DNA of 64,000 nt, from assembly GCF_902833045.1 (NCBI RefSeq), contig NZ_CADFDU010000001.1, forward strand, positions 699,927-763,926. Reading direction: 5' to 3'. Shown here in pieces: positions 12,753-26,518 of this stretch. The translations under genes and the position numbers were made by a program. This stretch comes from Burkholderia sp. BCC0322 (lineage in GTDB: Bacteria > Pseudomonadota > Gammaproteobacteria > Burkholderiales > Burkholderiaceae). Each line of letters begins with the position of its first letter. Positions within the stretch are counted from its first letter, which is position 1. Under the pieces are notes generated by a model. It did no database searches. It saw nothing but the letters and a program-made list of their open reading frames with translations, and had not been told where the DNA came from.

Positions 12753-13064
12753 ATGGCGCGTTTCTTTGCGGTGTTTGCGACGGACCAGCCGGGCATGCGC
12801 GACGTGCGCGATCGCGTGCGGCCGATTCACCGGACTTACCTGCGCTCGGCCGATCAGCACGGTGTGGTGGTGCGGCTCGGCGGCCCGACGCTGGATCCGC
12901 ACGGCGACGCGATGAACGGCACGCTGCTCGTCGTGGAGGCGGACGACATTCAGGCGGTGATGCAGTTCATCGGCAACGATCCGTATGTGAAGGAAGGGCT
13001 GTTCTCGCATGTGGAGGTGCGGCCGTGGGACTGGAGCCTCGGCAACCCCGAGCAGAGAGTGTGA
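12753..13064 (+). CDS. YCII-related small protein
   Basis: 103 residues with the YCII/YciI pattern: an opening FFAVFATDQPGM strand, RPIHRTYLRSADQHGVVVRLGGPTL in the middle and a closing SHVEVRPWDWSLG. YCII-like proteins have a ferredoxin-like fold with a His/Asp pair, and often sit in aromatic degradation operons as muconolactone isomerase-like or lyase-type enzymes. Its ATG lies five bases after the end of the dioxygenase remnant, and its stop codon touches the start of the Rieske gene (stop ends 13064, next ATG 13065). Such coupling shows one operon. The reaction is not known. Confidence 0.75.
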   Translation: MARFFAVFATDQPGMRDVRDRVRPIHRTYLRSADQHGVVVRLGGPTLDPHGDAMNGTLLVVEADDIQAVMQFIGNDPYVKEGLFSHVEVRPWDWSLGNPEQRV

Positions 13065-13403
13065 ATGATGGAAGCACGACCACTCTGCCGCTTTTCCGAT
13101 GTGCCTGACGGCGGCGCGTCGGTCGTCGACGAAGCATGCATCGGGCGCCCCGTGATCGTCGTGCGACGGGGCGAGCAGGTGTGGGCGTATGTGAATCGTT
13201 GCCCGCACTTCTCGGTGCCGCTCGATTTCGTGCCGGGCAGCGTTTCCTGTTACCGGTCGCAGGTGTTGATGTGTGCCCATCACAGCGCGCTGTTCCGGTT
13301 CGACGATGGCGTGTGTATCGACGGGCCTTGCTCGGGCTCGGCGCTGGAGGCCGTGGTTGTCGAGGTGGATTCCACCGGGTGGGTCGTCTATCGCGGTGCT
13401 TGA
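13065..13403 (+). CDS. Rieske [2Fe-2S] ferredoxin-like protein
   Basis: 112 residues. Cys46-Pro-His48 and Cys70-Ala-His-His73 form the Rieske C-x-H ... C-x2-H cluster-binding motif, though the spacing between the halves and a short extra Cys segment (CIDGPC) make it an atypical member. The ATG pair at 13065/13068 follows directly on the stop of the YCII-like gene, so translation is coupled. It may pass electrons to an oxygenase or protect the Fe(II) of the hydroquinone dioxygenase, as ferredoxins do for other ring-cleaving enzymes; both roles are inference. No partner oxygenase is present in the cluster. Confidence 0.8.
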   Translation: MMEARPLCRFSDVPDGGASVVDEACIGRPVIVVRRGEQVWAYVNRCPHFSVPLDFVPGSVSCYRSQVLMCAHHSALFRFDDGVCIDGPCSGSALEAVVVEVDSTGWVVYRGA

Positions 13404-13600
13404 TCCGGGTGAGTTGGCGAAGTGCAGACAAGGCCGGTTGATGCGGCGGTTGTTGTATCTATAAATCAGTAAAGCTAATCATATTCAACGCGTCGGGAAA
13501 ACGACACCCGAAAGACGGCGATTCCTTGTGCAGCACCGGGCGAGCACCTGCCACGCAGCAGGTGGCGGTCCCGCATTTTCATAAAAAAGACGGAGACGGA

Positions 13601-14689
13601 ATGAAACTCAGGTTTGGAGCAGTGGCGATTCTTGCCGTGGCGCAGGGCGCATGGGCGCAGAGCAGCGTGACGATGTTCGGGCTGATCGACGCCGGCGTGT
13701 CTTATGTCAGCAACGAGGGGGGCGGAAAGAACGTCAAGTTCGACGACGGCATATTCGCGCCCAATCTCTTCGGCTTTCGCGGTACGGAAGACCTTGGCGG
13801 CGGATATCGCGCGATCTTCGCGCTCGTGAACCAGTTCTCGATGGCCAACGGCAGCATCGTCGGGACCGGGATTTTCGGGCGCAACGCGTACGTCGGCCTC
13901 GAAAGCAATCGGCTCGGCAGCGTCACGCTGGGCAATCAGTATGACTTCATGGTGGATTCGCTGTTTTCAAAGAACAACGCGATTTCGCGGGATATCTCGG
14001 GGCTGTACGGTTTTCGCAATGGCCCGTTCCAGCGTCTCGCGCTCCCGGACAATCCGACCGGTGCGTTCGATTGGGACCGCACGGCTGGCAGCAAGCCGAT
14101 CGCGAACGCCGTCAAGTACAGCTCGCCGACGGTCGCGGGTTTTTCCGGCGGCGTGATGTATGCGTTTGGCGGGGTGGCCGGTTCGGTTGGTGCGGACAAT
14201 GCCGTCAGCGCCGGGGTGAACTATGACGCGGGCGCGTTTGGTGTAGGCGTGGCTTATACGAACGAGAAGTACGGTCCCGCGCCCGGCGTGCCGTCCACCA
14301 GCGTGCGCAACTGGGGCGTCGGGATGCACTACGACTTCGGTGTCGTGACCGCGAGTGCGCTGGTGACCGCCGTGCGGAATTCGTTCAACGATGCCGGGGT
14401 GTGGATGGCCGAAGCGGGCGGGTTGTGGCACGTGCGACCGGATGTCGTGCTGGGGGCGAAATACATGTACATGAAGGGCAATGAAGCGGTGAACGACAAC
14501 CACGCGCACCAGGTCAGCGTGGCGCTTCAGTACCTGTTCTCGAAGCGGACGATGGTCTATGTGTCGGCGGATTATCAGCGGGCGAACAGCGGCGCGAATG
14601 CGCAGGTCAATGGCGTGCTCGATCCGAATGGGGCTTCTAGTTCGGCGAGCCAGACGGTGGCGCGGGTGGGGGTGCATACGGTGTTTTGA
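13601..14689 (+). CDS. General porin (Burkholderia/Neisseria type, gram-negative porin)
   Basis: 362 residues with a clear signal peptide (cleavage after GAWA, mature start QSSVTMFGLIDAG). The sequence is a textbook beta-proteobacterial trimeric porin: SSVTMFGLIDAGVSYVSN at the start, FGFRGTEDLGGGYRAIF, RNAYVGLE, and a C-terminal strand ending in Phe (RVGVHTVF). It should sit in the outer membrane. GGAGACGGA lies just before the ATG. It is separated from the Rieske gene by about 200 bases with an AT-rich stretch around 13460-13490, so it may have its own promoter. Its place suggests a channel for pathway substrates. Confidence 0.93.
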   Translation: MKLRFGAVAILAVAQGAWAQSSVTMFGLIDAGVSYVSNEGGGKNVKFDDGIFAPNLFGFRGTEDLGGGYRAIFALVNQFSMANGSIVGTGIFGRNAYVGLESNRLGSVTLGNQYDFMVDSLFSKNNAISRDISGLYGFRNGPFQRLALPDNPTGAFDWDRTAGSKPIANAVKYSSPTVAGFSGGVMYAFGGVAGSVGADNAVSAGVNYDAGAFGVGVAYTNEKYGPAPGVPSTSVRNWGVGMHYDFGVVTASALVTAVRNSFNDAGVWMAEAGGLWHVRPDVVLGAKYMYMKGNEAVNDNHAHQVSVALQYLFSKRTMVYVSADYQRANSGANAQVNGVLDPNGASSSASQTVARVGVHTVF

Positions 14690-15053
14690 TTGGGCCGTGG
14701 TGCCGCGCTTCATTTTGTCTACGGGTCGTTTCGTCGGCACGTACGAGATCGCGTCGTCGAGCTCGGCTCCTGCGCGCTGGCCGGATCGGGTGCGCCACCC
14801 GATGTCGAGATTCACTCAACTTGGTTCCGACGCGCCAGCCGTACACGGCCTACCGGAAAACGCGCTTATTCAATGTTGAATTCGCGGTGCATTCAACGTT
14901 GAACTTCCAAGGGCAGCTTGGCTCGGTCGCGCACGGGCGACCGGCTCTCATCGACCCGAAGCGGAAGTAGCCGACTCGAAATCCGACGACGCAAAGCGGT
15001 CATCCCAGCTTCTACGCCGCACGGGGCCACCTTCCCGACGTGCTAGCGGTCGA
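14690..15053. other. Intergenic region after the porin gene
   Basis: About 360 bases with no credible gene. It holds two 12-bp palindromes at 14869-14880 and 14892-14903. It marks the left margin of the accessory region, since the genes that follow are of unknown type and composition falls further on. Confidence 0.4.
14869..14903. repeat. Pair of 12-bp palindromes, TTCAAyGTTGAA
   Basis: TTCAATGTTGAA (14869-14880) and TTCAACGTTGAA (14892-14903) are perfect or near-perfect palindromes whose centres are 23 bases apart, about two helical turns. This is what a dimeric repressor binding twice on one face would use. No gene starts close by, so they may be a relict operator. Confidence 0.5.
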
Positions 15054-15431
15054 CTACGCGTCGCCACGGTTCGCGGTGAAAGACCGAAGCGTATCCTCTC
15101 GGGGCAGTTCTGAGGGTGCATCACCGGCGAGTCCGTAAACTTCGATGCCACTTAGCAAACCAGCGCTCTCGTAAATGAAGATTCCCGCCGGCGCGTCGTC
15201 CGGGCCAAAGAGAAAGTCCCCGAGAACATGCACCCCCGGCGGCGCAGGTTGGTTGCCCTTGATCTGAAAATTGATACTTGCACAGCCGCAGGGGCAGCGC
15301 CACGGTGTGACTTCGGCCACCGCGAGTTGTTCGAGAAACGCTCGCGCCTCCGGTTCGCCATGTTCCAGCATCCAGCGAGCGAGCGACATCTCGGAAGCCG
15401 ACAGTGGGCGATTTACTTCGCGAGGATTCAT
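15054..15431 (-). CDS. Conserved hypothetical protein with CPCGC motif
   Basis: 125 residues from the ATG at 15431. An N-terminal helix pair (LARWMLEHGEPEARAFLEQL) leads into WRCPCGCASINFQIKG, a Cys-x-Cys-x-Cys cluster that could bind metal, then a beta-rich part (PPGVHVLGDFLFG, IFIYESAGLLSGIEVYGLAG). No signal peptide or membrane segment is present. I recognise it as the type of conserved protein found scattered in proteobacterial accessory regions, but know no function. It stands alone on the minus strand at the left side of the island. Confidence 0.65.
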   Translation of the reverse strand: MNPREVNRPLSASEMSLARWMLEHGEPEARAFLEQLAVAEVTPWRCPCGCASINFQIKGNQPAPPGVHVLGDFLFGPDDAPAGIFIYESAGLLSGIEVYGLAGDAPSELPREDTLRSFTANRGDA

Positions 15432-15687
15432 GGTTTGGGCAATCGAACGGATGCAAGCGAGTTTAGCAGGCGGGTGGCGGGTGGCCGCTTCTTCGACGGG
15501 AGACACTGAAAGCGGACGCTCGCAAACGACTCTTCCTGGCCGAACTGAGCCACAGAGCAACCTTGAGGCCGGCGGACCGGCATTGACCACAACCTTGAAG
15601 TAACTTTAGAGGTCGGCGTTGAGTGAGCAAAGTTCCCAGTAGGATGAATCTCGACACCCGACCAAGGTAGGGCTCCTCCGGCACGTC

Positions 15688-15715
15688 TTGCCCGCTATCC
15701 GATTTTCGGTATAAT
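15688..15715 (+). promoter_or_regulatory. Sigma-70-type promoter
   Basis: A perfect -10 box TATAAT (15710-15715) is preceded at a 16-base spacing by TTGCCC (15688-15693). Transcription would begin near 15722, at the first hairpin of the leader. Confidence 0.55.
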
Positions 15716-15721
15716 GAACCC

Positions 15722-15892
15722 GCGTTCGGAATGTCGAACGTAAGAATTCAAGCATCCAGAGTCGGGCTATCCGACGCCAACCTGCCCTCCCGGGCAAGGT
15801 GGACGCCTTCGAGGCGATGCGGCCGATTTACGGCAACGAAACGGGAGCAGCATGGCTGGCACCGGTTCGATAACCACTCATCCGGAGCCACC
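15722..15892 (+). promoter_or_regulatory. Structured 5' leader with possibly sequestered ribosome binding site
   Basis: Between the predicted transcript start and the ATG at 15893 lie six inverted repeats in a row: 15723-15740 (CGTTCG/CGAACG), 15761-15775 (GTCGG/CCGAC), 15783-15796 (TGCCC/GGGCA), 15804-15816 (CGCCT/AGGCG), 15822-15834 (GCCG/CGGC) and 15853-15890 (TGGCT/AGCCA with inner CCGG/CCGG). The last one encloses the Shine-Dalgarno GGAG at 15884-15887. It looks like a cis-acting leader, but short stems arise easily in GC-rich DNA and I cannot match it to a known riboswitch class. Confidence 0.35.
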
Positions 15893-16249
15893 ATGCGTCA
15901 AGCTACCTCCACTTCCTGCCCCGCAGTCTGTGAAGACTGGTCGCATTTCCTTCCCGGTTTCACGCTGACGCATACGGTTCATCTCGTATCGGGATTGAAT
16001 CCGGGCATAGTCTCGACGGCGGCCGCCGTACTCGAAGATGAAACCGCCACGGTTGACCGCTGGGCCATCACCCGCTGTGGGGGCGTTCTGGAGCAGAAAA
16101 TCGTTCTCGGGGAAATGACGGAAGGGCAGGCGGTTCGATTGCGCGAACGACTTGCGGCGCTCGATGGCGTGTTTCGCACGAGGGTTGAGCATCATTTCGT
16201 TCGGGCGGGTTCGGGGGCGTCCTACAATGCGCCGGAGAGCGGTCGTTAG
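15893..16249 (+). CDS. Hypothetical protein, possibly ACT-like
   Basis: 118 residues. The ATG at 15893 is chosen because CGGAG is six bases upstream and the product then begins cleanly; the frame is open further 5' but that part overlaps the structured leader. The core (FTLTHTVHLVSGLNPGIVST, ... DRWAITRCGGVLEQKIVLGEM, ... AVRLRERLAALDGVFRTRVEHHFVR) has the beta-alpha-beta-beta-alpha-beta rhythm of a small ACT-like ligand-binding domain, but with no firm family match. If it is an ACT protein, the long leader upstream would fit regulation by a small metabolite. Function unknown. Confidence 0.5.
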   Translation: MRQATSTSCPAVCEDWSHFLPGFTLTHTVHLVSGLNPGIVSTAAAVLEDETATVDRWAITRCGGVLEQKIVLGEMTEGQAVRLRERLAALDGVFRTRVEHHFVRAGSGASYNAPESGR

Positions 16250-16724
16250 GCGGGGCATTTGCGTCGTCGCGGTGTCTGCTGATGGCGTTCCGGATTTAAA
16301 GCCTTTGCATGTCATGCTCTACCCGCGCGAGTGAAACGTCTGGACGGGCGTCTACTCGTCCTGCTCTGGCAACGGCCCGAAGGTACGGCGTCTTCGCTGC
16401 AGTGCCCTCTCTGGTTGCTTTGTTAGCTTACTTGCGCTGCGGCTATCTGCGAGCAAGCCCATTTTGGGTGGGTCTGAGCATCGCTGAATCGAGTCCGCTG
16501 ATTCCGCCAGGGCGACCATCTCCGACTCGAACCCTTTAGATTTGGAGCCCTGCATCGGTTCTATTTGGCACCTCGCCAAGAGAATCAAACGGAGAACGTT
16601 AAAGGGGTTTCTTTTCCCTATCAATCGAGAGCTTCGAGACGACGGCAAACCGTTTGCATCGGCAGATTGAGGGGGATGTCAAACAGTTTTCTGTTAGGGC
16701 GAGGTGAGGCTATCATTCAAATTC
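16250..16724. other. Intergenic region at the left of the AT-richer block
   Basis: About 475 bases with only short, unconvincing frames on both strands. Composition shifts here toward that of the defence genes. AT-rich stretches between 16600 and 16725 probably contain the promoter of the next gene. Confidence 0.35.
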
Positions 16725-18059
16725 ATGAAGACCCCGTACGTCCCCCATTTCTTCGGAACCGACGCGTTGGCAAAGGTGGCCGACCGGATTGGCTGGCTAA
16801 CAGTCGGCGTTGCCTCGTCCATAGCGTGGCCAGTTGATGACGTTTGGGTTCAATACGACGGCTCTGAATACCTGCTCCACGGGGTTCGACAGGAGGGGCA
16901 GCGACGTATAGCGCCGAGCGTCAGCACACCGGCTACTCGCGAGGAAATTGATGAAGCCCTTTCGCGGCTTTATCGGTTCGTGTCCGTGCTCGGTTTCTTC
17001 AAGCGGGGATATGTAGATATCACTGGCCGAAATTGGGCCGGTCACGTCATGCGCAACGTCACGCTAGGTGAATCGCTTGGCACGGTGCTTCAGGGAGGGG
17101 AGCGGGGATTCAGCTGTAATCACATGCCAATTGTTGAGGATGACAAAGTGCGTAAGGCACTTGCATTCCTCCGCGAGGGGCGCAGATTGGAACGGGTGCA
17201 TGAACCCTACTCGTTCCTGTCGTTTTTTAAAGTCATAGAGAGCCAGTTTCGGCCGCGTGATCGTGTTGCATGGGTTGAGGAAAACTTGGCGCTTGTCACG
17301 CAGGAGCGGGCCGTCAACCGCATCAATGAGTTACGGGGACAAGGTGTAAACGTCAACCAGCATCTGTTCGATTCCGGGCGATGCGCGGTGGCTCACGCGA
17401 GCGTAGACGGTAACATTGTGGACCCGGACATACCGGCAGACCGGAAGCGCATTGCCGCTGACCTAGACATAATTTCGGCACTGGCAGACCGCTACATCAA
17501 AATTGACGCGGGCGTGCCTGACGAGATGGACCTTTACAAGTCACGGGATCGCGTAGCGCCGTGGCATGCTTTGATGCCCGCAGAATCCGTCGCCACGTTG
17601 AAAGCCGGTGGTAATTTGGGCTCGGAAAAAGATCTTGGCCAGCTCGATGGCGCGACGGTGTCAGTGCGGTTGTGGCCTGATGCACCCGCTCCGCAGTTCG
17701 AACGGATGACGCTGCTGCCGACGGCGAGCGTTAATGGTGCTGTGAAATTCATTGCACTGAGTGCCCACGGCACCATCGTGCTGGCGTTCGCGATGGACGT
17801 GAAAAACGGCCGTATGCATACGCTGCTGAACGAGGGTGGTATGCGCGCTGGCGTTGAAATTGGGGAAGAAGATATCGAGGATTACACGCGCTACTTCCAT
17901 AGTGTCGTGGGTAACCGCATTGTAGAGCTGATTATCGACGGCACTGAGCCGGTTGACTGTGAGGTAGTTATACCAGTCAACATCATTCCGCAGGCGCCAG
18001 AAGAGGCAGTTGCCCATGCTCTCGACCAGTTCAGGCGGTCTAGGCAGCAGGGCGTCTAG
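16725..18059 (+). CDS. MauJ-like protein with HEPN-type R-x4-H motif
   Basis: 444 residues from the ATG at 16725; an in-frame GTG at 16704 is possible. The region around YSFLSFFKVIESQF (162-175) and the later SGRCAVAHAS (218-226) recalls proteins annotated as methylamine utilisation protein MauJ, but no other mau gene is near. Arg219 and His224 form R-x4-H, the motif of HEPN ribonucleases. The C-terminal third is a beta-rich domain (FIALSAHGTIVLAFAMDVKNG). Codon use is AT-richer than in the flanking genes. It precedes a second R-x4-H protein and a Hachiman system, so a defence role is plausible but unproven. The name MauJ should not be taken as function. Confidence 0.6.
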   Translation: MKTPYVPHFFGTDALAKVADRIGWLTVGVASSIAWPVDDVWVQYDGSEYLLHGVRQEGQRRIAPSVSTPATREEIDEALSRLYRFVSVLGFFKRGYVDITGRNWAGHVMRNVTLGESLGTVLQGGERGFSCNHMPIVEDDKVRKALAFLREGRRLERVHEPYSFLSFFKVIESQFRPRDRVAWVEENLALVTQERAVNRINELRGQGVNVNQHLFDSGRCAVAHASVDGNIVDPDIPADRKRIAADLDIISALADRYIKIDAGVPDEMDLYKSRDRVAPWHALMPAESVATLKAGGNLGSEKDLGQLDGATVSVRLWPDAPAPQFERMTLLPTASVNGAVKFIALSAHGTIVLAFAMDVKNGRMHTLLNEGGMRAGVEIGEEDIEDYTRYFHSVVGNRIVELIIDGTEPVDCEVVIPVNIIPQAPEEAVAHALDQFRRSRQQGV

Positions 18060-18061
18060 TT

Positions 18062-18184
18062 ATGCCTTATCAGGTAACTCTTAGCCGCCGGTCCGACGAA
18101 GAGGTCACCGCGAAGTACGGTGTGAGTAGGAGGATGTACACCTATTGCGTCTCGATGACCCGCGTGAACCGGCAGTTTCGGTGA
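18062..18184 (+). CDS. Possible 40-residue peptide
   Basis: An ATG two bases after the stop of the MauJ-like gene opens a 40-codon frame with Arg-rich, polar content and no recognised motif. Its end overlaps another short frame (18145-18345, TTG start) that itself overlaps the next gene. The two might be halves of a frameshifted small gene. Coupling to the upstream stop is the only support. Confidence 0.25.
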   Translation: MPYQVTLSRRSDEEVTAKYGVSRRMYTYCVSMTRVNRQFR

Positions 18185-18328
18185 CGAGGGAGCCGCAGCG
18201 AAAGCGGCGTGATGTGTTTATGCGGCCGCCTCAGTTGGTACTCAAAGCGCTTGCAGTCCCCAGCGGTATGTGTAAAGAGATGCACCATTTCCGGCGGGCG
18301 TTGGAGATGACCAGAAAAAAGGGCTGCA

Positions 18329-18922
18329 ATGAGCTTTGCCAATGAATTCGCAGTCGTAGACTTGGTAGCAAAGAGCCAACTCGCAACCAGCGCGGTAGAT
18401 GCATTTTCGCTCGCCATCGTCAAGATGGAGCGGCAAATGCGGAAGCTCTTTACATATCTCGTCTATCAGGCTCACGCTTTCGGTCCTGAAAGTGTGGAAG
18501 AACTTAGACAAGTGTTGGGTGCGAGTAGGAAAGCGTACTTTGAAGGTTTCGAGCGAGGCATAAATGAACTTTCCGCAGCCTCAATCGAAAAAATGGTGGG
18601 GCAGCAATACAATGGACTTCGGCCAATCCTTGTGGACGCATTGGACGTTCGAAACAAAGTCTTCCACGGCCAATTGACTACGCGTTGTCTCCAGCGAGAC
18701 CAACTCGATGAGCTGACCGACTTTATCAGGCACTGGTGCAATTTGCTTGCCGACGGGGCAAGCAGAGCAGTTGGATACGACGGGTTTGGGCGCAACTCGT
18801 TTCAAAAAGGGCCAGACGGGCTGGTAGAGACGTTCAAAGTTCAAATAGACACGGTGGAAAAGTATCGAGCATTTATCCGGGACCATGTAGAGCGGCCCTC
18901 GCGCCGAGGTCAAGGGGTATAG
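18329..18922 (+). CDS. Predicted HEPN-domain protein
   Basis: 197 residues, almost wholly alpha-helical by composition. DVRNKVFHGQLT carries Arg108 and His113 in the R-x4-H arrangement with the Asn after Arg and Gly after His that mark HEPN domains. HEPN proteins are often RNases of toxin, abortive infection and CRISPR systems. The preceding helices (VDAFSLAIVKMERQMRKLFTYL) and following helix (LDELTDFIRHWCNLLAD) fit the four-helix HEPN core. It ends with a basic tail. It lies between the MauJ-like gene and hamA in the AT-richer block. RNase activity is inferred from the motif only; no MNT partner is seen next to it. Confidence 0.6.
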   Translation: MSFANEFAVVDLVAKSQLATSAVDAFSLAIVKMERQMRKLFTYLVYQAHAFGPESVEELRQVLGASRKAYFEGFERGINELSAASIEKMVGQQYNGLRPILVDALDVRNKVFHGQLTTRCLQRDQLDELTDFIRHWCNLLADGASRAVGYDGFGRNSFQKGPDGLVETFKVQIDTVEKYRAFIRDHVERPSRRGQGV

Positions 18923-19322
18923 CATTCGCGAAATTGCTGGCGGCGGGCAAGAGGGGAATTTTTTAGCGAAAAGAGAACGTTTCATCTGCATCTTTTCAAT
19001 AAATCGTTGCCAACGATATCGCAACCACTTGCATCCAGGCAACATGGGTAGTTACGAAATTTCCGCCGTAACCATCTCCGCTGTCAAAATTGACAGGATG
19101 CCCTCAACTTTCTGCGGCATCGACCGTAGATACGTCAAGCAGTATAGTTTTCGTCTTGGACGCGCGATGTCGATTGAGAAGCGTCAACGCGCAACGAATC
19201 ATCGTTGGAGCCTAGCCGTCAGTGCGCCCTCATGGCGTTCGGCGAGTCAAGATATGCAAGACGCGTATCTTGACGGTGCTCTCTCCACCTGTTTCTGGGG
19301 GGGGGCGGAAAACTGCGTGAAA
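18923..19322. other. Region between the HEPN gene and the chosen hamA start
   Basis: About 400 bases. The hamA frame is open from 19029, so part may be coding if an upstream start (ATG 19044) is used. This stretch has no recognisable domain. It includes the nine-G tract at 19297-19305 and AT-rich sequence at 18955-19010 suitable for a promoter. Confidence 0.4.
19297..19305 (+). repeat. G9 homopolymer before hamA
   Basis: Nine consecutive G bases, in a region where such runs are otherwise absent. It ends 17 bases before the ATG at 19323. If an upstream start is used it lies inside the coding sequence, where a one-base slip would shift the frame. Confidence 0.8.
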
Positions 19323-20384
19323 ATGACCGATAATGATGTGGCTAGCATGCTTCGCATGCAAGTTTCTAATAGTCGATATTTCGACCAACCAGTTGTCCGT
19401 GTCTTCAAAATGGAAGCCAACAACGCAGTGAACTCGAGAATCGAGCAGTACTTCAAACCTCTCATCGGCAAGCATATTGTCGTGAACCGAATACGCCGGA
19501 TATCGACGGGTGGCAAATTGGAACCGTCTGTCTCGGCGCATTTCCTGTATCCAGCGTTCGAGCGTGGAAAGCCGGCGATGGACGCACTCATCGAGGCCTT
19601 GAAACTAGAGATTCCAGCTTTTTGCACTACAAAGCAAGAGCGAGCGAAAGCGTTGGCGAAGGATAGAGCAGGAGGATTGGAAACCTTCGAGACGCAAATG
19701 TTAGTAGACAAAGCGAGACGACTGTTCATCAAAGCCACGGCGGGAAAGAAGGACTCTGGCGAAGGCGGGGAGCTATTGCTGTTCGCGTTCATCGAGCATT
19801 TCCTTGAGGCGCCCATCATTTTATCCAAGATGAGGTTGAAGACAAACACACAGATGCCCGTGCATGGAGCTGATGGTGTTCACGCAAGATGGGACAGTGA
19901 AGGCAATCGGCTTGTCGTCATATTTGGTGAATCTAAGGTCCATGCATCGATTCACGGAGCGCTCAAGGCCGCTGCGGAATCAGTTGGCTCTTTCGTCGCA
20001 GATGTCGAAGGCAGAAAAACGCATGAGCTTCTGTTGACGACTGACCACGTTGACCTCGATGGTTTTCCTGAAGAGTACAAGGAGGAGCTCATACGCTATC
20101 TCCATCCATTCGCTACGGAAGAGGGCGCACGTCGTCAAGAAAGATTTGCCATCTTGCTTGCGTATACGTCGAAAGGATACGCGACGCTAGACAGGCTTAC
20201 GGCTACTGAAGCGGAGAGGGCGTTCTTGGACGACTACAACACGAAACTGTCGCCGGCACTGCGTCTCGCAAAGAAACATCTCGCGCAGGCTGGCGTGGAA
20301 CTCGATACAGTCGACCTGTTCGTTTTGCCTATGCCAAGTGTGCAGGAATTTCGCGACAAGTTCGACGAGGTGCTGGATGGCTGA
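19323..20384 (+). CDS. hamA: HamA, DUF1837 nuclease of a Hachiman antiphage system
   Basis: 353 residues from the ATG at 19323; an ATG at 19044 would add 93 residues without recognisable similarity. The DUF1837 core is clear: GGELLLFAFIEHFLEAP (148-164), LSKMRLKTNTQMPVHGADGV (167-186) and IFGESKVHASIHGAL (200-214). Asp184 and Glu203-x-Lys205 make a PD-(D/E)xK-like active site, as known for HamA, a DNA-degrading effector held by HamB. The stop overlaps the hamB start by 8 bases, so the two are translated together. A G9 tract lies just upstream. Family assignment is strong; the N-terminal boundary is uncertain. Confidence 0.85.
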   Translation: MTDNDVASMLRMQVSNSRYFDQPVVRVFKMEANNAVNSRIEQYFKPLIGKHIVVNRIRRISTGGKLEPSVSAHFLYPAFERGKPAMDALIEALKLEIPAFCTTKQERAKALAKDRAGGLETFETQMLVDKARRLFIKATAGKKDSGEGGELLLFAFIEHFLEAPIILSKMRLKTNTQMPVHGADGVHARWDSEGNRLVVIFGESKVHASIHGALKAAAESVGSFVADVEGRKTHELLLTTDHVDLDGFPEEYKEELIRYLHPFATEEGARRQERFAILLAYTSKGYATLDRLTATEAERAFLDDYNTKLSPALRLAKKHLAQAGVELDTVDLFVLPMPSVQEFRDKFDEVLDG

Positions 20385-22929
20385 CTTTAGAACAAGATTG
20401 GCAGACGAGGTCTCGTCAAACAGAGAGTTTTGTGCGGCATATGATGTCCTGCAGAGAGACAGTCTAAGCTCGTTATTGAATGGGAACAGGCGGCTCAGTT
20501 CGGCCCTGGCCACGAAACTCCTCCGTTCGGCTCTAATCTTTGCTCAGAGCAGCCGCGAGTCTCACTTCATGCTAGCGCAGAACATTGCTTACTGCCTTGC
20601 GACAGCGTCTATCACCGATGAAGAGCGTATCGTGTGTCGCCATATTATGGCAAGCGTCGGAAATTTTCCGGCGGGCGAATTCATTTCATCGGAAGTGGGG
20701 GACGATTGCCAACTGCCTTGGCAATTGGCGTTGTCGGAACTAGCGAGGCGAGAAGGTAATACGGTGCTTGTATCGGGAAAACCCGAGCTGTTCACTGATT
20801 TTCAGCGTAATGTCTGGAATGAACTGCAGCAACGGCAGCATGTCAGTGTTAGAGCGCCGACCTCCGCAGGGAAGTCATACATCGTCCAAGCTTTCATCAA
20901 AGAAACGCTTGAAAAATCCGATGCTGTGCTCGACATCGCGTACATCGTTCCCTCTCGGTCATTGATTCACGAAGTTCAAGGGAACCTCGCCCGGTTGCTC
21001 GAACAACTGCCGACCCCGCCGGTTATCAGCAGCGTACCTCGAACAAGGCCCGAACTTGCGTCACACCAATCGCGAGTCTTTGTTTTTACGCAAGAACGTC
21101 TGCGAACCGCTCTCGACCAGAGCGATTTGTCGCTCGACATACTCATTGTCGATGAAGCTCAGCAAATCGCGGATGGGGCGAGAGGAATGCTCTTGCTGGA
21201 TTGCCTCGAAGACGTCGCGTCAAGAATGCCGCAGTCCAGGTTACTCTTCATTACCCCTGGGACGCAGAGCGCAGCTACCATCGGTAGATTGCTTGGCGTT
21301 CACGGCGTAGTGGATGTTGGAACGAATCTGAGGCCAGTGCGGCAGAATCTGATTTTCGTCAATTTCGAAGAGGCCAAGCGTGACGAGCATATGGTGCTGA
21401 CGCTCCAGCGGCCTGAAGGCGGGCGGCTCACTATCGGGAGGTTGCCGGCCAGGCCTTCGAATACTGAAATCGGCCGCTTCATCGATGCGATACTCCAGCT
21501 CGGGACGGAGGGGCAGAGCCTCGTTTACGCTTCTTCCAAGCATCCCGCGGAGAGCATCGCGAATGAGTTGGCAAACGCCAGTAAGTGTGAACCGAACGCA
21601 CGTTTGCTCGAGTTGGCTGGATTCATTCGAAAACACGTCCACCCGGAATTTACCTTGGCAAACTGTGTGGAACGCGGTGTGGGGTTCCATTTCGGCAATA
21701 TGCCGACAAACCTCACAAAGGCCATAGAAGAGTACTTCGTAGAAGGCTTGCTGCATACATTGGTCTGCACGTCGACTCTCCTTCAGGGGGTCAACCTTCC
21801 TGCTCGCAACATCTTCTTGTACAAGCCGGAGAAAGGCAACCACACGCCGATGAATCCGGATGACTTCTGGAATTTGGCGGGGCGTGCCGGACGGCTCAAG
21901 AAGGATACTCACGGGAACGTCTTCTTGGTTAGCTATGACACGTGGAAGAATAGGCCGGCCCACGAACCTCCGTCGACAGAGGTTACTGCCGCGTTTACAA
22001 CGGCACTGACGACAGAGCAGAAGACTCTCTTGAAGTTCGCACAAAACGCTAATCACCGCTCCGGCGTACGCCAGACGGCATTCGCCGAAAGTGTATTTTC
22101 TCGTTTGGTTACTGACATCAAAACTGGTGCACTTGCAGAGACGGTTCGGCGCGTTGCGCCAAACGGTCTTCACGCCGATGCTATACAGACGATTGCGGTG
22201 GTAGAAGAGCAGTTGGATAAGGTGACCCTTCCGCCGGAAGTGCTGAAACGTCATGGGATGATTTCGCCACTACGTCAGCAGCAAATGTATGACGTGCTTC
22301 GGGTCGCGGTTCGCGCAGGGCAGCTCGAGGAGCACGTACCTCTTCATCCTCAGCACAAATACAGCGAGGTGAAGACTCGCTTCATGTTCATTCTTTCTCT
22401 AATTCATACGAATCTCGAAGGTATTTCGAATCGTGCCCACCGTTACTACAGTTGGTTCGCTTTGTCGTGGATGAGAGGTCGTTCCTTGTACGAGATGATT
22501 GACTTCCAGCTTAAAAGGGCCAGGGAGAAAGCGAAGGAGGAGGGGTATGACGGGCTCGTGCCTGCGGGCGAAACGATTAAGAGTGTGATGAAGCAAATCG
22601 AGGAGCAGTTGAGGTTCAAATATGTGAAATTCGTCGCTTGCTACATCGACCTACTTCGCTTGGCGGCTTTAACGGAGAAGGGTTTGGATTTGCAAGATAT
22701 TCCGCCTATTCCGCTTTTCTTGGAGCTCGGGGCTTGCTCAGGAACGATGATTGGATGCATGGACTTGGGAATGTCAAGAATTGCGGCAAGAGAGGTGACA
22801 GACGTTTTGGATGGCCGGGACTTGAACTCTGTAATTGTCAAGAAAAGATTGAAGGCGCTATCGCCCGAGCGATTTAGACGGTTGTCACCCTTAGTTAGGC
22901 GAGAATTGCAGAGGCTCGCGTTGATTTGA
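20377..22929 (+). CDS. hamB: HamB, DEAD/Ski2-like helicase of a Hachiman antiphage system
   Basis: 850 residues from the ATG at 20377, inside the end of hamA. Superfamily 2 helicase motifs are in order: Walker A APTSAGKS (160-167), DEAQ Walker B (259-262), FITPG (motif III-like, 291-295), and motif VI NLAGRAGRLKKD in the second RecA domain. The long C-terminal half is helical and typical of Ski2-like enzymes. In Hachiman, HamB is the ATP-driven sensor that loads on DNA and releases the HamA nuclease upon phage damage. Direction, order and overlap with hamA match known systems. No integrity problem is seen: no stop or frameshift. Confidence 0.87.
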   Translation: MADFRTRLADEVSSNREFCAAYDVLQRDSLSSLLNGNRRLSSALATKLLRSALIFAQSSRESHFMLAQNIAYCLATASITDEERIVCRHIMASVGNFPAGEFISSEVGDDCQLPWQLALSELARREGNTVLVSGKPELFTDFQRNVWNELQQRQHVSVRAPTSAGKSYIVQAFIKETLEKSDAVLDIAYIVPSRSLIHEVQGNLARLLEQLPTPPVISSVPRTRPELASHQSRVFVFTQERLRTALDQSDLSLDILIVDEAQQIADGARGMLLLDCLEDVASRMPQSRLLFITPGTQSAATIGRLLGVHGVVDVGTNLRPVRQNLIFVNFEEAKRDEHMVLTLQRPEGGRLTIGRLPARPSNTEIGRFIDAILQLGTEGQSLVYASSKHPAESIANELANASKCEPNARLLELAGFIRKHVHPEFTLANCVERGVGFHFGNMPTNLTKAIEEYFVEGLLHTLVCTSTLLQGVNLPARNIFLYKPEKGNHTPMNPDDFWNLAGRAGRLKKDTHGNVFLVSYDTWKNRPAHEPPSTEVTAAFTTALTTEQKTLLKFAQNANHRSGVRQTAFAESVFSRLVTDIKTGALAETVRRVAPNGLHADAIQTIAVVEEQLDKVTLPPEVLKRHGMISPLRQQQMYDVLRVAVRAGQLEEHVPLHPQHKYSEVKTRFMFILSLIHTNLEGISNRAHRYYSWFALSWMRGRSLYEMIDFQLKRAREKAKEEGYDGLVPAGETIKSVMKQIEEQLRFKYVKFVACYIDLLRLAALTEKGLDLQDIPPIPLFLELGACSGTMIGCMDLGMSRIAAREVTDVLDGRDLNSVIVKKRLKALSPERFRRLSPLVRRELQRLALI

Positions 22930-22987
22930 CACATATAAGAATCTTCCGAGAGCAATCAAACACGCCTACGGCGCGCGCAGGTGACGA

Positions 22988-23275
22988 ATGCTGAACTTCA
23001 AAGATTGGTGTGCGACAGAGAAATCTACCGTGGGATTACATGAGTTGCGCGTGGTTACCGTCAACCCGGCAAAGCTAAGTATCGGAATTGCCGCGACTGC
23101 CGAAGTCGTTCCGTCTCATTACGCGTCGGAGGAGCGTATTGCCCGACTTTTGTCTCGGTTGGGGAAGCCGGAAACTTCGGAGAACTTTGCTCCGCGAGCC
23201 TCGACCGGACTGGCTACATTCGTGACGAGACTGCTAAAGGTCCGTAGACGGAGCCTATACAGGTCAGGGCACTGA
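22988..23275 (+). CDS. Small orphan protein after hamB, possibly truncated
   Basis: 95 residues. Not recognised with certainty. The first 65 residues look like the N-terminus of a longer, folded protein (FKDWCATEKSTVGLHELRVV and YASEERIARLLSRLGKPE), whereas the last 30 are Ser/Arg-rich and unlike a natural end, so a frameshift or truncation is suspected. It begins 58 bases after hamB in the same direction and has matching base composition. It may be an accessory gene of the defence locus in decay. Confidence that it is a real gene or gene fragment is moderate; function unknown. Confidence 0.4.
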   Translation: MLNFKDWCATEKSTVGLHELRVVTVNPAKLSIGIAATAEVVPSHYASEERIARLLSRLGKPETSENFAPRASTGLATFVTRLLKVRRRSLYRSGH

Positions 23276-23704
23276 TTACGCGATTCATTCGGAGTTATAC
23301 CCGAGCGTGAGTTAGCCCAGTTGGTACTTGGTAATCGGGGGAGAGTTACCAGGAAGTTAAGCGTCCACTGCGAGCGCGGCACGAATAGTTGGGACGAAGG
23401 CCAAGGGGTCAGCACAAAAAGCTTTCTGTTTCGTGCTGAGACAAGAATTGGTTGTTCGCGAGCGACAAAAATTGTGCAACTACAGACCGATTATAGCTAC
23501 AACGCACTGGATGCAAGTTTTTTGCGCTAGTAACTGGCTAAGCAGAAACTCTCTAGTCCGCAGTACGGGTTCCCCCGCGTTGCGAACGACTCTAGGTAAT
23601 ACTGTAACACCGCGATGTGTCCTTTAGCCATCAGGCTCTGTGCCATGGAAACTCGGCCCCTGACTGTGCTTGAAAGTCTACATGCTTCGGGTTCTGGGAG
23701 GTAA

Positions 23705-23742
23705 GTAGGGGCTCGGCCTACTGCTTTTCGCCCCGTTTTTTT
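23705..23742 (+). terminator. Possible terminator downstream of the defence genes
   Basis: GTAGG (23705-23709) and CCTAC (23717-23721) can pair around GGCTCGG. Further on, CCCC is followed by a run of seven T. The T-run is 14 bases after the hairpin, so the match to a standard intrinsic terminator is loose. Confidence 0.3.
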
Positions 23743-23913
23743 GGGGAAAATCTGCTATGGGAGGTGGAGGCGGGACTATTTGGAGCCGCGGGGCGCTTTC
23801 ATTTTGGCTGACGGCATGAGACCGGGTTGACGCCCCGAACACCCGCTTGATGGAATTATTTCGGTGTAACTTTTTCGGATTCTCCTCGCTGAAGTGAGTA
23901 ATTTTTCGTTGCA

Positions 23914-24008
23914 GGATTAGAGGCGTTTACGTCAAAAAACAAGCGTTTTGATCCAAAAACTGGGTCCTGACGGGATGGAAGCGTTTACGTGAAAACGCTT
24001 CTAATCCG
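23914..24008. repeat. Cluster of repeated AGCGTTTACGT-type motifs next to glmS
   Basis: Direct copies are GGCGTTTACGTCAAAA (from 23922) and AGCGTTTACGTGAAAA (from 23980), with a diverged AAGCGTTTTGATCCAAAA at 23941-23958. An inverted copy, AAACGCTTC (23993-24001), makes a 9-bp hairpin with GAAGCGTTT (23978-23986). The outer parts GGATTAGAGGCGT and its near reverse complement ACGCTTCTAATCC extend this into a large imperfect inverted repeat. Such arrays occur at transposon ends and in replication or operator sites; which one applies here is not known. Confidence 0.55.
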
Positions 24009-24019
24009 GATTGCCACTG

Positions 24020-24040
24020 AAAAGGGCATGAAACGCCCCC
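24020..24040 (-). terminator. glmS terminator
   Basis: Read on the minus strand directly after the glmS stop, GGGC and GCCC pair around a 7-base loop and are followed by TTTT. The stem is short (4 GC pairs), but place and T-run fit an intrinsic terminator. The attTn7 insertion point would fall in or just beyond it. Confidence 0.5.
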
Positions 24041-25870
24041 TCACTCCACCGTCACCGACTTAGCCAGATTCCTTGGCTTATCAATATCCGTCCCCCTTGC
24101 CAGCGCCGCGTGATACGCAAGCAATTGCATCGGCACCGTATGCAGAATCGGCGAAAGCGGCCCGTAGTATTCATTGAGCCGAATCACCTCGATCCCCTCA
24201 CTCGGCACCAGCCCGCAGTCGACATCCGCAAAGACAAAAAGCCGTCCATTCCGCGCACTGACCTCATGCATGTTCGACCGGAGCTTTTCGAGCAGCATGT
24301 CGTTCGGCGCAACCGCAATCACCGGCATCTCGTTACTCACCAGCGCCAGCGGCCCATGCTTGAGTTCGCCAGCCGGATACGCCTCCGCGTGAATATAAGA
24401 AATCTCCTTCATCTTCAACGCGCCCTCGAGCGCGATCGGAAAATGCATCCCCCGCCCGAGAAACAGCATGTTGTCGTGCCTTGCGAGCAGTTCCGACCAC
24501 GCCATGATCTGCGGCTCCAGCGCGAGCACTTTCGACATCGCATCGGGCAGATGCCGCAGCGCACGCAGATGCGCCTTCTCCTCGTCGTCGCTTAACCGCC
24601 CGCGCACCTGCGCAAGCGACAACGTCAGCAGGAACAACGCAACGAGTTGCGTCGTGAACGCCTTCGTCGAAGCCACCCCGATCTCGACGCCCGCACGCGT
24701 GACGAACTGCAGCGCACATTCCCGCATCAACGCACTCGTCGCGACGTTGCAGATCGCGAGCGTATGCATCATTCCAATGCGCTTGGCGACATGCACGGCA
24801 CCCAGCACATCAGCCGTCTCGCCGCTCTGCGACACCGCGACAACCAGCGTGCGCGGATTCGGCACGCTGTCGCGATACCGGAACTCGCTCGCAATTTCCA
24901 CGCTGGCCGGCAGCTTCGCGATGCTCTCGATCCAGTACTTCGCCGTGAGCGCCGCGTGATAGCTGCCGCCGCACGCGAGCAACAACACCGAATCGACGTC
25001 ATTGAAAACCCGCCACGCTCCGTCGCCGAACAACTCCGGCATGATCGAAGACACATCGAGCAACGTATCGGCCACCGCCTGCGGCTGCTCGAAGATCTCC
25101 TTCTGCATGTAGTAGCGATACGACCCGAGATCGGCCGCGCCGCTATGCGCGGCGACCCGCTGCACCGCGCGCTCGACGCGCTGGCCGGCCGCATCGACGA
25201 TCCAGTAGCGATGAAGCTGAATATCGGCAACATCACCGTTCTCGAGGTAAGCGATGCGATCCGTGATCCCCGACAACGCAATCGCATCCGATGCCAGAAA
25301 ATTCTCGCCTTCACCGACGCCGACGACGAGCGGCATCCCGTCGCGCGCGCCGACGATCCGGTGCGGCTCGTCGCGGCACATCACCGCGATCGCATAGCTG
25401 CCGCGCAGTCGCGCGACCGCACGCCGCACCGCATCGAACAGATCGCCGTCGTACAGATGATCGATCAGGTGCGCGATCGCCTCGCTGTCGGTCTGGCTCG
25501 CGAACACATAGCCATGCGCCTGCAATTCGGCGCGCAGTTGATCGCAGTTCTCGATGATCCCGTTGTGCGACAGCGCGATGCGCGCGTTGGCGTCGCTCGG
25601 CGAGAAGTGCGGGTGCGCGTTGAGCGTGACGGGCGCGCCATGCGTGGCCCAGCGCGTATGCGCGATGCCGGTGTAGCCCGACAGCGCATGCTCGGCGATC
25701 TCGCGCTGCAGGTTGGCCACGCGCTCGACGCTGCGAGCGCGCGCCAGCGCCCGGTCGCGATAGACCACGACGCCGCACGAATCGTAGCCGCGGTATTCGA
25801 GCCGCTTCAGGCCGTCGACCAGGTTCGGCAGGATGTCCCGCTGGGCGACCGCCCCGACAATTCCACACAT
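24041..25870 (-). CDS. glmS: Glutamine-fructose-6-phosphate aminotransferase (isomerizing)
   Basis: 609 residues, the normal GlmS length. It starts MCGIVGA, so Cys2 is the free N-terminal nucleophile of the glutaminase domain after Met removal. Residues about 290-600 form two SIS sugar-isomerase domains ([42 protein letters not shown]), and the end is [12 protein letters not shown]. It makes glucosamine-6-phosphate for peptidoglycan and LPS. The true start is the conserved Met at 25870 rather than the longer frame to 25927. Burkholderia carry several glmS copies, each a possible Tn7 attachment site; here an accessory region lies right after its 3' end. Confidence 0.96.
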
Positions 25871-25930
25871 ATCGCGCTCCCTAAATGTCCTGTCTGGATC
25901 AGTGAGAGCGATGGTAGGGCGAGCCAAATG

Positions 25931-26001
25931 GAATTAAATTTCAAAATACAAAAGTAGATGAAATAAATGGCAGGTCAGCTATCATGTTGAAATTAAATTT
26001 C
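25931..26001. promoter_or_regulatory. Two palindromic AATTAAATT operators in the glmS/AsnC gap
   Basis: GAATTAAATTTC (25931-25942) and the perfect palindrome GAAATTAAATTTC (25989-26001) lie 59 bases apart between the divergent glmS and AsnC/Lrp-family genes. AT-rich palindromes of this kind are typical Lrp/AsnC sites, so the regulator probably controls itself and perhaps glmS. Confidence 0.55.
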
Positions 26002-26026
26002 ACGACCTGACTGGAAGGAGCCGCCG

Positions 26027-26518
26027 ATGGCCGGCATCACCCTCGACGATCTCGACCTGCGCATCCTCGCGATCCTGCAGGACGACGCGTCGGTGTCGAA
26101 CCTGCAACTGGCCGAGCGCGCGCTGTCGTCGCCGCCCACCTGCATGCGCCGCGTGCGCCGGCTGACGGAAGCCGGCGTGATTCGCCGGCAGGTTGCGGTG
26201 CTCGATCCGGTGGCGATCGGCACGGCCGTTACCGCGCTGATCGAGATCAGTCTCGACCGGCAGACCGCGGAAGACTACGACGCGTTCGAAGCGTACGTAT
26301 GCGCGGAGCCGGCCGTCACGCAGTGCTACCGCGTGTCGCCGGGGCCCGATTTCGTCGTGGTGGCCGATCTGGCCGACGTCGCCGAATACGACGAATTCGC
26401 GCGAAGGCTGTTCACCGGCGCATCGAACGTCCGCAACGTGCGGACGTTCTTCTCGACACATCGCGCGAAGTTCGAAGCGAATGCGCGGGTCACGCATGCG
26501 ATGCGCAAGCGCGCGTAG
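26027..26518 (+). CDS. Lrp/AsnC-family transcriptional regulator
   Basis: 163 residues. It begins LDDLDLRILAILQDDA, the classic AsnC start, with a helix-turn-helix at about 22-50 (SNLQLAERALSSPPTCMRRVRRLTEAGVI, shown only in part as conserved). A RAM effector domain follows at about 65-150 (VAVLDPVAIGTAVTALIEI, VTQCYRVSPGPDFVVVADL). GGAAGGAG lies just before the ATG. Such proteins form octamers that sense amino acids. It is divergent from glmS with two AT-rich palindromes between. A role in hexosamine supply would be unusual, so glmS control is only a suggestion. Confidence 0.92.
   Translation: MAGITLDDLDLRILAILQDDASVSNLQLAERALSSPPTCMRRVRRLTEAGVIRRQVAVLDPVAIGTAVTALIEISLDRQTAEDYDAFEAYVCAEPAVTQCYRVSPGPDFVVVADLADVAEYDEFARRLFTGASNVRNVRTFFSTHRAKFEANARVTHAMRKRA

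What the first reader, a model, noticed from the sequence alone, without database searches (positions are those of the whole stretch)
19323..22929. Complete Hachiman (HamA-HamB) antiphage system in a Burkholderia accessory region
Seen: a DUF1837 protein with GADG and ESK motifs followed, with an 8-base overlap, by an 850-residue Ski2-like helicase with intact motifs. Known: this pair is Hachiman, where HamB senses damaged or phage DNA and frees the HamA nuclease. HamA here may be longer than usual (353-446 residues) because of an N-terminal part without known similarity, which could be an added sensing or control element.
Basis: partly seen in the sequence, partly recalled or inferred. Interest (0 to 1): 0.8.

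Follow-up and report, generated by a model that had tools for sequence, protein, structure and literature searches.

The report
Ordinary Hachiman anti-phage gene pair
The two genes are a complete, ordinary Hachiman phage-defence pair (a nuclease and a DNA-sensing helicase) sitting in a variable spot next to the glmS gene; the suspected extra front part of the nuclease is most likely untranslated DNA, and a fragment of a second Hachiman nuclease gene lies just behind the pair.

Summary
Confirmed: window 19410-20384 (+) encodes HamA and 20377-22929 (+) HamB, overlapping by 8 bases. PADLOC calls HamA1 (E 1.7e-118) and HamB1 (E 7.1e-282) over nearly whole profiles; Pfam HamA 6.1e-43. Nuclease residues D155, E174, K176 and the helicase motifs are intact. 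A Paraburkholderia homologue is 74% and 78% identical. It is a canonical Hachiman (HamAB) locus whose mechanism is published, so interest is low.

Not supported: a long HamA with an added N-terminal control element. Frames of 30 homologues leave only 0-48 codons before the M128 column, DNA similarity to the nearest one begins at 19405, and coding signal fades upstream of about 19320. HamA is most likely 324 aa, possibly up to 353.

The pair lies in low-GC DNA at the glmS 3' end; none of 10 relatives examined has it, and one is nearly empty there. In passing: frame 22988-23272, just behind hamB, holds the first ~61-65 residues of a different-lineage HamA without its catalytic part, probably a relic. 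No structure could be predicted.

The parts
19410..20384 (+). hamA, most likely 324 aa (ATG 19410; ATG 19323, 19347, 19356 or GTG 19317 cannot be excluded). Nuclease effector with D155, E174, K176.
   Evidence: PADLOC PDLC00168 E 1.7e-118 from frame residue 131; Pfam PF08878 6.1e-43; DNA similarity to L002 starts at 19405.
20377..22929 (+). hamB, 850 aa, Ski2-like SF2 helicase, overlaps hamA by 8 bases
   Evidence: PADLOC PDLC00187 E 7.1e-282, profile 1-847 of 851; Pfam DEAD and Helicase_C; motifs APTSAGKS, DEAQ, STLLQGVN, NLAGRAGR.
   Evidence: no Pfam or PADLOC match to frame residues 1-130, no blastn similarity to L002 upstream of 19405, codon score 0.020, homologue frames closed by stops.
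22988..23272 (+). 95-codon frame; its first ~61-65 residues are the N-terminus of a second, different HamA lineage (PDLC00159); catalytic part missing
   Evidence: PADLOC E 1e-14 (profile 1-65 of 257); 38-55% identity to 5 of the 7 loci compared, weak or no match to the other 2; 43 plasmid records at E<=1e-3.
16704..18059 (+). neighbour: MauJ-family protein (PF17419), 451 aa; not beside hamAB in the two relatives checked
   Evidence: Pfam 3.4e-23; no tblastn match in L002 or L024.
18329..18922 (+). neighbour: 197-aa protein with an R-x4-H (RNKVFH) motif, possibly HEPN-like (label mine); not beside hamAB in the two relatives checked
   Evidence: Pfam HEPN_RiboL-PSP below cut-off, E 0.096; 64% homologue behind a type I restriction gene in G042.
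24041..25927 (-). glmS-like gene whose 3' end borders the variable site
   Evidence: SIS and GATase domains; near-full-length match of 24041-26500 in 37 of 41 same-genus genomes, only ~70% paralogue matches listed in the other 4.

Best explanation
A canonical two-gene Hachiman (HamAB; PADLOC HamA1/HamB1) anti-phage system carried as cargo in a variable spot next to glmS. Inferred from the published ECOR31 system: HamB holds HamA inactive while scanning intact DNA; a free single-stranded DNA end from damage or phage replication triggers ATP hydrolysis by HamB, which switches on HamA, a D-ExK nuclease, and phage and host DNA are destroyed (abortive infection). Shown here: gene identity, order, overlap, intact active-site residues, constraint on the proteins, accessory location. 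Inferred: complex formation, activation signal, DNA degradation, phage protection. HamA is of ordinary length, with no added sensing domain.
For: (profiles). (intact frames, 8-base overlap). (D, E, K in 31 of 31 aligned HamA rows, window included). (Walker A GK[ST] in 29 of 29 HamB rows; motif VI in 18 of 29; the other 11 have a gap there, 10 because the fetched locus ends, and L026, whose frame stops short of the locus end, for a reason not examined). (against L002: pN 0.143 vs pS 0.809 for hamA, 0.136 vs 0.784 for hamB; synonymous sites saturated); 7 of the 34 plasmid records were fetched; in 6 of 7 a DUF1837 gene is annotated next to a DEAD/DEAH helicase gene, the seventh record is unannotated and has a HamB frame. 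(HamA profile hits 9wh1_A, AbpA/HamA C-terminal type, E 4.6e-8). (HamB hits 8vx9_B, ECOR31 HamB, E 1.7e-10). Mechanism from PMC12278908.
Against: No experiment and no structure model of these proteins. The PDB searches did not return the ECOR31 HamA chain: not with phmmer at E<=0.001 (its three hits are HisF-type chains with no stretch passing on its own, taken as chance) and not with the 12-row profile at E<=1 (besides 9wh1_A two SPT2 chains at E 0.96-0.99). HamB matches ECOR31 HamB only over residues 440-541 of the 863-residue frame. Motif II is DEAQ rather than DEGH.
Confidence: 0.94

Rival explanations
1. HamA here is 353-451 aa with a genuine added N-terminal sensing or control domain.
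For: The frame is open back to at least 19029; a purine-rich stretch precedes GTG 19317/ATG 19323; the segment 19323-19409 scores 0.134 per codon in frame, above zero.
Against: No family matches frame residues 1-130. In 30 homologues the stop-to-stop frame leaves 0-48 residues before the M128 column: 20, 4 and 0 in L002, L024 and L041, 12 and 48 in L038 and L039. Blastn similarity to L002 starts at 19405. Codon score is 0.020 for 19029-19409 against 0.237 for HamA, and the upstream G+C pattern over codon positions is flatter. The 19323-19409 score is noisy: a reverse-strand frame of it scores 0.272.
Confidence: 0.05
2. The pair is a decayed or inactive Hachiman relic, like the fragment behind it.
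For: A truncated second hamA lies directly downstream.
Against: Both frames are intact, active-site residues are kept, and constraint against L002 is strong.
Confidence: 0.03
3. Hachiman works together with the two upstream genes (MauJ-like and HEPN-like) as one larger system.
For: Same strand and same low-GC segment; the 197-aa protein has an R-x4-H motif and its homologue sits behind a restriction gene.
Against: Neither gene matches in L002 or L024, the two relatives checked with long upstream flanks. The gap from 18922 to 19410 is about 490 bases. The G042 homologue of the 197-aa protein has no HamA or HamB match in its 14-kb stretch; a MauJ homologue on a Xanthomonas plasmid has no Hachiman gene annotated in the stretch shown.
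Confidence: 0.03

Closest known systems
Hachiman (HamAB) of E. coli ECOR31 (PMC12278908; PDB 8vx9)
   Same: DUF1837 D-ExK nuclease plus a Ski2-like helicase as two proteins
   Different: HamB 850 aa vs a 1174-aa chain in 8vx9; DEAQ vs DEGH in motif II; only local sequence similarity
Hachiman of Paraburkholderia sp. Ac-20340 (L002, NZ_JAAGPR010000007.1)
   Same: 74% (HamA) and 78% (HamB) identity, same order
   Different: no blastn similarity upstream of 19405; neither upstream neighbour present; the fetched locus ends close behind the hamB match
AbpAB (E. coli; related PDB 9wh1)
   Same: HamA-like C-terminal domain plus Ski2-like helicase
   Different: AbpA carries an N-terminal Cap4 nuclease and a HamA domain described as inactive; here no fusion and an intact D-ExK
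HamMAB nuclease-protease Hachiman (PMC12799240, passages)
   Same: HamA/HamB core
   Different: protease fused to HamA and a separate HamM nuclease; no match to either was seen here

Membership tests
Hachiman (HamAB) | HamA with DUF1837/PF08878 domain | tested here: met
   PF08878 E 6.1e-43, 147.7 bits vs cut-off 25; PADLOC HamA1 E 1.7e-118
Hachiman (HamAB) | HamA D-E(X)K nuclease residues | tested here: met
   D155, E174, K176; conserved in 31 of 31 aligned rows, window included
Hachiman (HamAB) | HamB Ski2-like SF2 helicase adjacent to hamA | tested here: met
   PADLOC HamB1 E 7.1e-282; motifs intact; 8-base overlap
Hachiman (HamAB) | HamB N-terminal helical domain that binds HamA | tested here: inconclusive
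   the PADLOC HamB1 profile covers HamB from its first residue, but no structure could be predicted
Hachiman (HamAB) | phage protection and DNA degradation on damage | not testable with these tools
   needs experiments
AbpAB / fusion-HamA variants | extra N-terminal effector domain on HamA | tested here: not met
   no Pfam or PADLOC domain in frame residues 1-130, no conservation, little coding signal upstream of ~19320
HamMAB | protease-HamA fusion with HamM nuclease gene beside it | tested here: not met
   Pfam finds only HamA in the HamA frame; the two genes upstream match MauJ and, weakly, HEPN. No HamM model was searched as such

The most novel reading that the evidence does not exclude
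The 95-codon frame behind hamB is translated, and the leftover HamA N-terminus of another lineage still touches HamB, acting as a small competitor or regulator of the intact HamAB rather than being a dead relic.
Probability: 0.03. Interest if true: 0.55.

Novelty: new member of a known kind. Interest (0 to 1): 0.15.

Why it matters
It adds one intact Hachiman locus of a HamA lineage that is uncommon among the relatives searched: PDLC00168 matched 1 of 399 genomes of the order at E<=1e-30 and 8 of 398 of the phylum at E<=1e-15; HamA of any kind (PF08878) matched 16 of 299 of the family. It shows that the HamA 'extension' is most likely a start-site artefact. The second HamA fragment suggests that Hachiman lineages followed one another at the glmS site, an example of defence-gene turnover. 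No new mechanism is indicated.

Tried and rejected
Added N-terminal HamA domain: rejected. AbpA-like or protease fusion: rejected. Co-working with the MauJ/HEPN neighbours: no match in L002 or L024. Viral carriage: none in viral contigs with the single sequence; 5 loci with the alignment, 28% identical; in the phage collection 1 record, 32% over residues 108-252. Repeats bounding the insertion: none convincing at 18 bases or more in 15600-24200. Promoter-like sites in 18900-23100: 3 against a shuffle mean of 2.5 (sd 1.6); terminator-like 7 against 4.5 (sd 2.4). Pieces of a second hamB in 22930-24040: each frame searched apart, only the HamA fragment gave a convincing match to a Ham protein. 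Literature, listings only: Hachiman plus Burkholderia gave 7 papers, none about this locus by title; the glmS/Burkholderia/island search gave 3, unrelated by title. Supplements were not searched.

Full report
What is there. Two + strand genes overlap by 8 bases: hamA ending at 20384 and hamB 20377-22929. PADLOC assigns HamA1 (PDLC00168, E 1.7e-118, profile 3-311 of 312) and HamB1 (PDLC00187, E 7.1e-282, profile 1-847 of 851); Pfam gives HamA PF08878 (6.1e-43) and DEAD/Helicase_C. NCBIfam gave no HamA match and, for HamB, only helicase models below their cut-offs. Each frame has only its terminal stop. The catalytic D, E and K are at 155, 174 and 176 of the 324-aa HamA and are shared by all 31 rows of an alignment of the window with 30 homologues. 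Rows left out: L001 and L040, which repeat L024; L046-L048, fetched, which gave no match at E<=1e-3. Among 29 HamB rows the Walker A GK[ST] is kept in all; motif II is DEAQ in 13 (window included), DEAH in 8, DEFY in 7, DEIQ in 1; motif VI is seen in 18, and 11 have a gap there, 10 of them because the fetched locus ends.

Constraint. Against Paraburkholderia sp. Ac-20340 (L002; the only locus returned by the genome-contig scan) protein identity is 74% (HamA) and 78% (HamB), with pN 0.143 and 0.136 against pS 0.809 and 0.784 over 324 and 834 codons. Synonymous sites are saturated, so this shows strong constraint but no usable dN/dS.

The N-terminal extension. Four results speak against it being protein. 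(a) The best HamA profile begins at frame residue 131, three residues after M128. (b) In 30 homologues the stop-to-stop frame leaves 0 to 48 residues before the M128 column: 20 in L002, 4 in L024, 0 in L041, 12 and 48 in L038 and L039. These are upper limits, since a frame starts before its start codon; whole frames are 283-388 aa. (c) Blastn similarity to L002 begins at window 19405 and runs to 22811. (d) Codon scores trained on hamB and the two upstream genes are 0.237 per codon for held-out HamA and 0.020 for 19029-19409; in sliding windows of 180 bases they rise from windows starting at 19260 onward. A start at 19317-19356 is still possible: 19323-19409 scores 0.134, though a reverse-strand frame of that short piece scores 0.272, and a purine-rich stretch precedes GTG 19317/ATG 19323. 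HamA could thus be up to about 353 aa, still an ordinary length.

Place in the genome. G+C is 51-56% in 17001-24000; neighbouring bins (13001-17000, 24001-26000) are 58-63%, and most of the rest of the window is 63-72%. Ten of the 41 same-genus genomes were examined beyond glmS. By blastn none of the 10 matches the window between 16270 and 24021 (matches over 60 bases). The last 150 bases before glmS differ from the window in all 10 and mostly from one another, though some share short ends. A small conserved ORF (15731-16249) and glmS are only 22 bases apart in G020 (L022), so there about 7.77 kb is missing. Of 65 genomes of the nearest genus, 6 have short matches to 16270-24036 and none a long one. 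Those of G040 and G025 lie next to glmS (from 23806 and 23842), and those of G018 lie at the left edge (16317-16690), so the foreign DNA may be as short as about 16.7-23.8 kb. No integrase or transposase was recognised among the 14 window proteins given to Pfam; not all genes of the window were scanned. Tn7 is known (recalled) to insert beside glmS, but no sign of it was seen in these calls, so the mode of entry is open. ARAGORN found no tRNA in the window.

Neighbours. Upstream on the same strand are a MauJ-family protein (16704-18059) and a 197-aa protein with an RNKVFH motif (18329-18922; the HEPN label is mine, Pfam E 0.096, below cut-off). Neither matches in L002 or L024. A 64% homologue of the 197-aa protein lies behind a type I restriction gene in G042; a 48% MauJ homologue lies on a Xanthomonas plasmid, with no Hachiman gene annotated in the stretch shown.

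A second HamA fragment. The frame 22988-23272, 58 bases after hamB, matches positions 1-65 of another HamA profile, PDLC00159 (E 1e-14). It is 38-55% identical to HamA frames of that lineage in 5 of 7 loci compared (L046, L047, L048, L071, L072), beginning at about the same residue and ending before the catalytic part; L073 (E 0.001) and L074 (no convincing match) agree weakly or not at all. 43 plasmid records match at E<=1e-3, and most of the 20 listed are annotated as Hachiman HamA. No other frame between 22930 and 24040 matched a HamA or HamB convincingly. The simplest reading is a relic of an earlier, different Hachiman locus at the same site.

How it works. From PMC12278908 (outline and abstract, Results part 1 of 3, Discussion, and passages), HamAB is a heterodimer in which HamB surveys DNA and HamA degrades it when damage or a free single-stranded end is met, killing infected cells. 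The locus meets every sequence-level criterion tested. Protease-HamA fusions (about 5% of systems) are reported to lack the D-GEXK motif in virtually all cases (PMC12799240, passages); other fusion types are mentioned there without the state of the motif in the passages seen. AbpA carries a Cap4 domain (PMC10732053, passages) and its HamA domain is described as inactive (PMC12278908). Here the site is intact and no fusion partner is seen, which agrees with HamA itself being the effector.

Limits. The window's own genome is not held; 'Burkholderia' is an inference. No structure was predicted because the machine was full. The ECOR31 HamA chain was not returned by the PDB sequence searches, so the link to it rests on the family profiles. 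Function is not tested.

Noticed in passing
window 22988-23272 (+): Truncated N-terminus (about 61-65 residues) of a HamA of another lineage (PDLC00159) right behind the intact hamAB; suggests successive Hachiman loci at one site.
   Followed up: yes
window 16270-24036: The glmS 3' flank is a variable site: none of 10 relatives examined shares this segment, and it is nearly empty (22 bases) in G020.
   Followed up: partly
window 18329-18922 (+): 197-aa protein with an R-x4-H motif, possibly HEPN-like; its 64% homologue in G042 follows a type I restriction gene. No PADLOC match.
   Followed up: partly
window 16704-18059 (+): MauJ-family (PF17419) protein in a defence-type island; 48% homologue on a Xanthomonas plasmid.
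   Followed up: partly
window 23920-23995: An 18-base repeat (two copies, 58 bases apart, 89% alike) just beyond the glmS 3' end; the stretch around it is shared with G040 and G025.
   Followed up: no
PDB 9wh1 chain B: A helicase chain deposited as 'DNA polymerase theta (Helicase domain only)' is the best-scoring solved relative of this HamB by sequence, and chain A of the same entry is AbpA/HamA-like, so the name looks misleading.
   Followed up: partly
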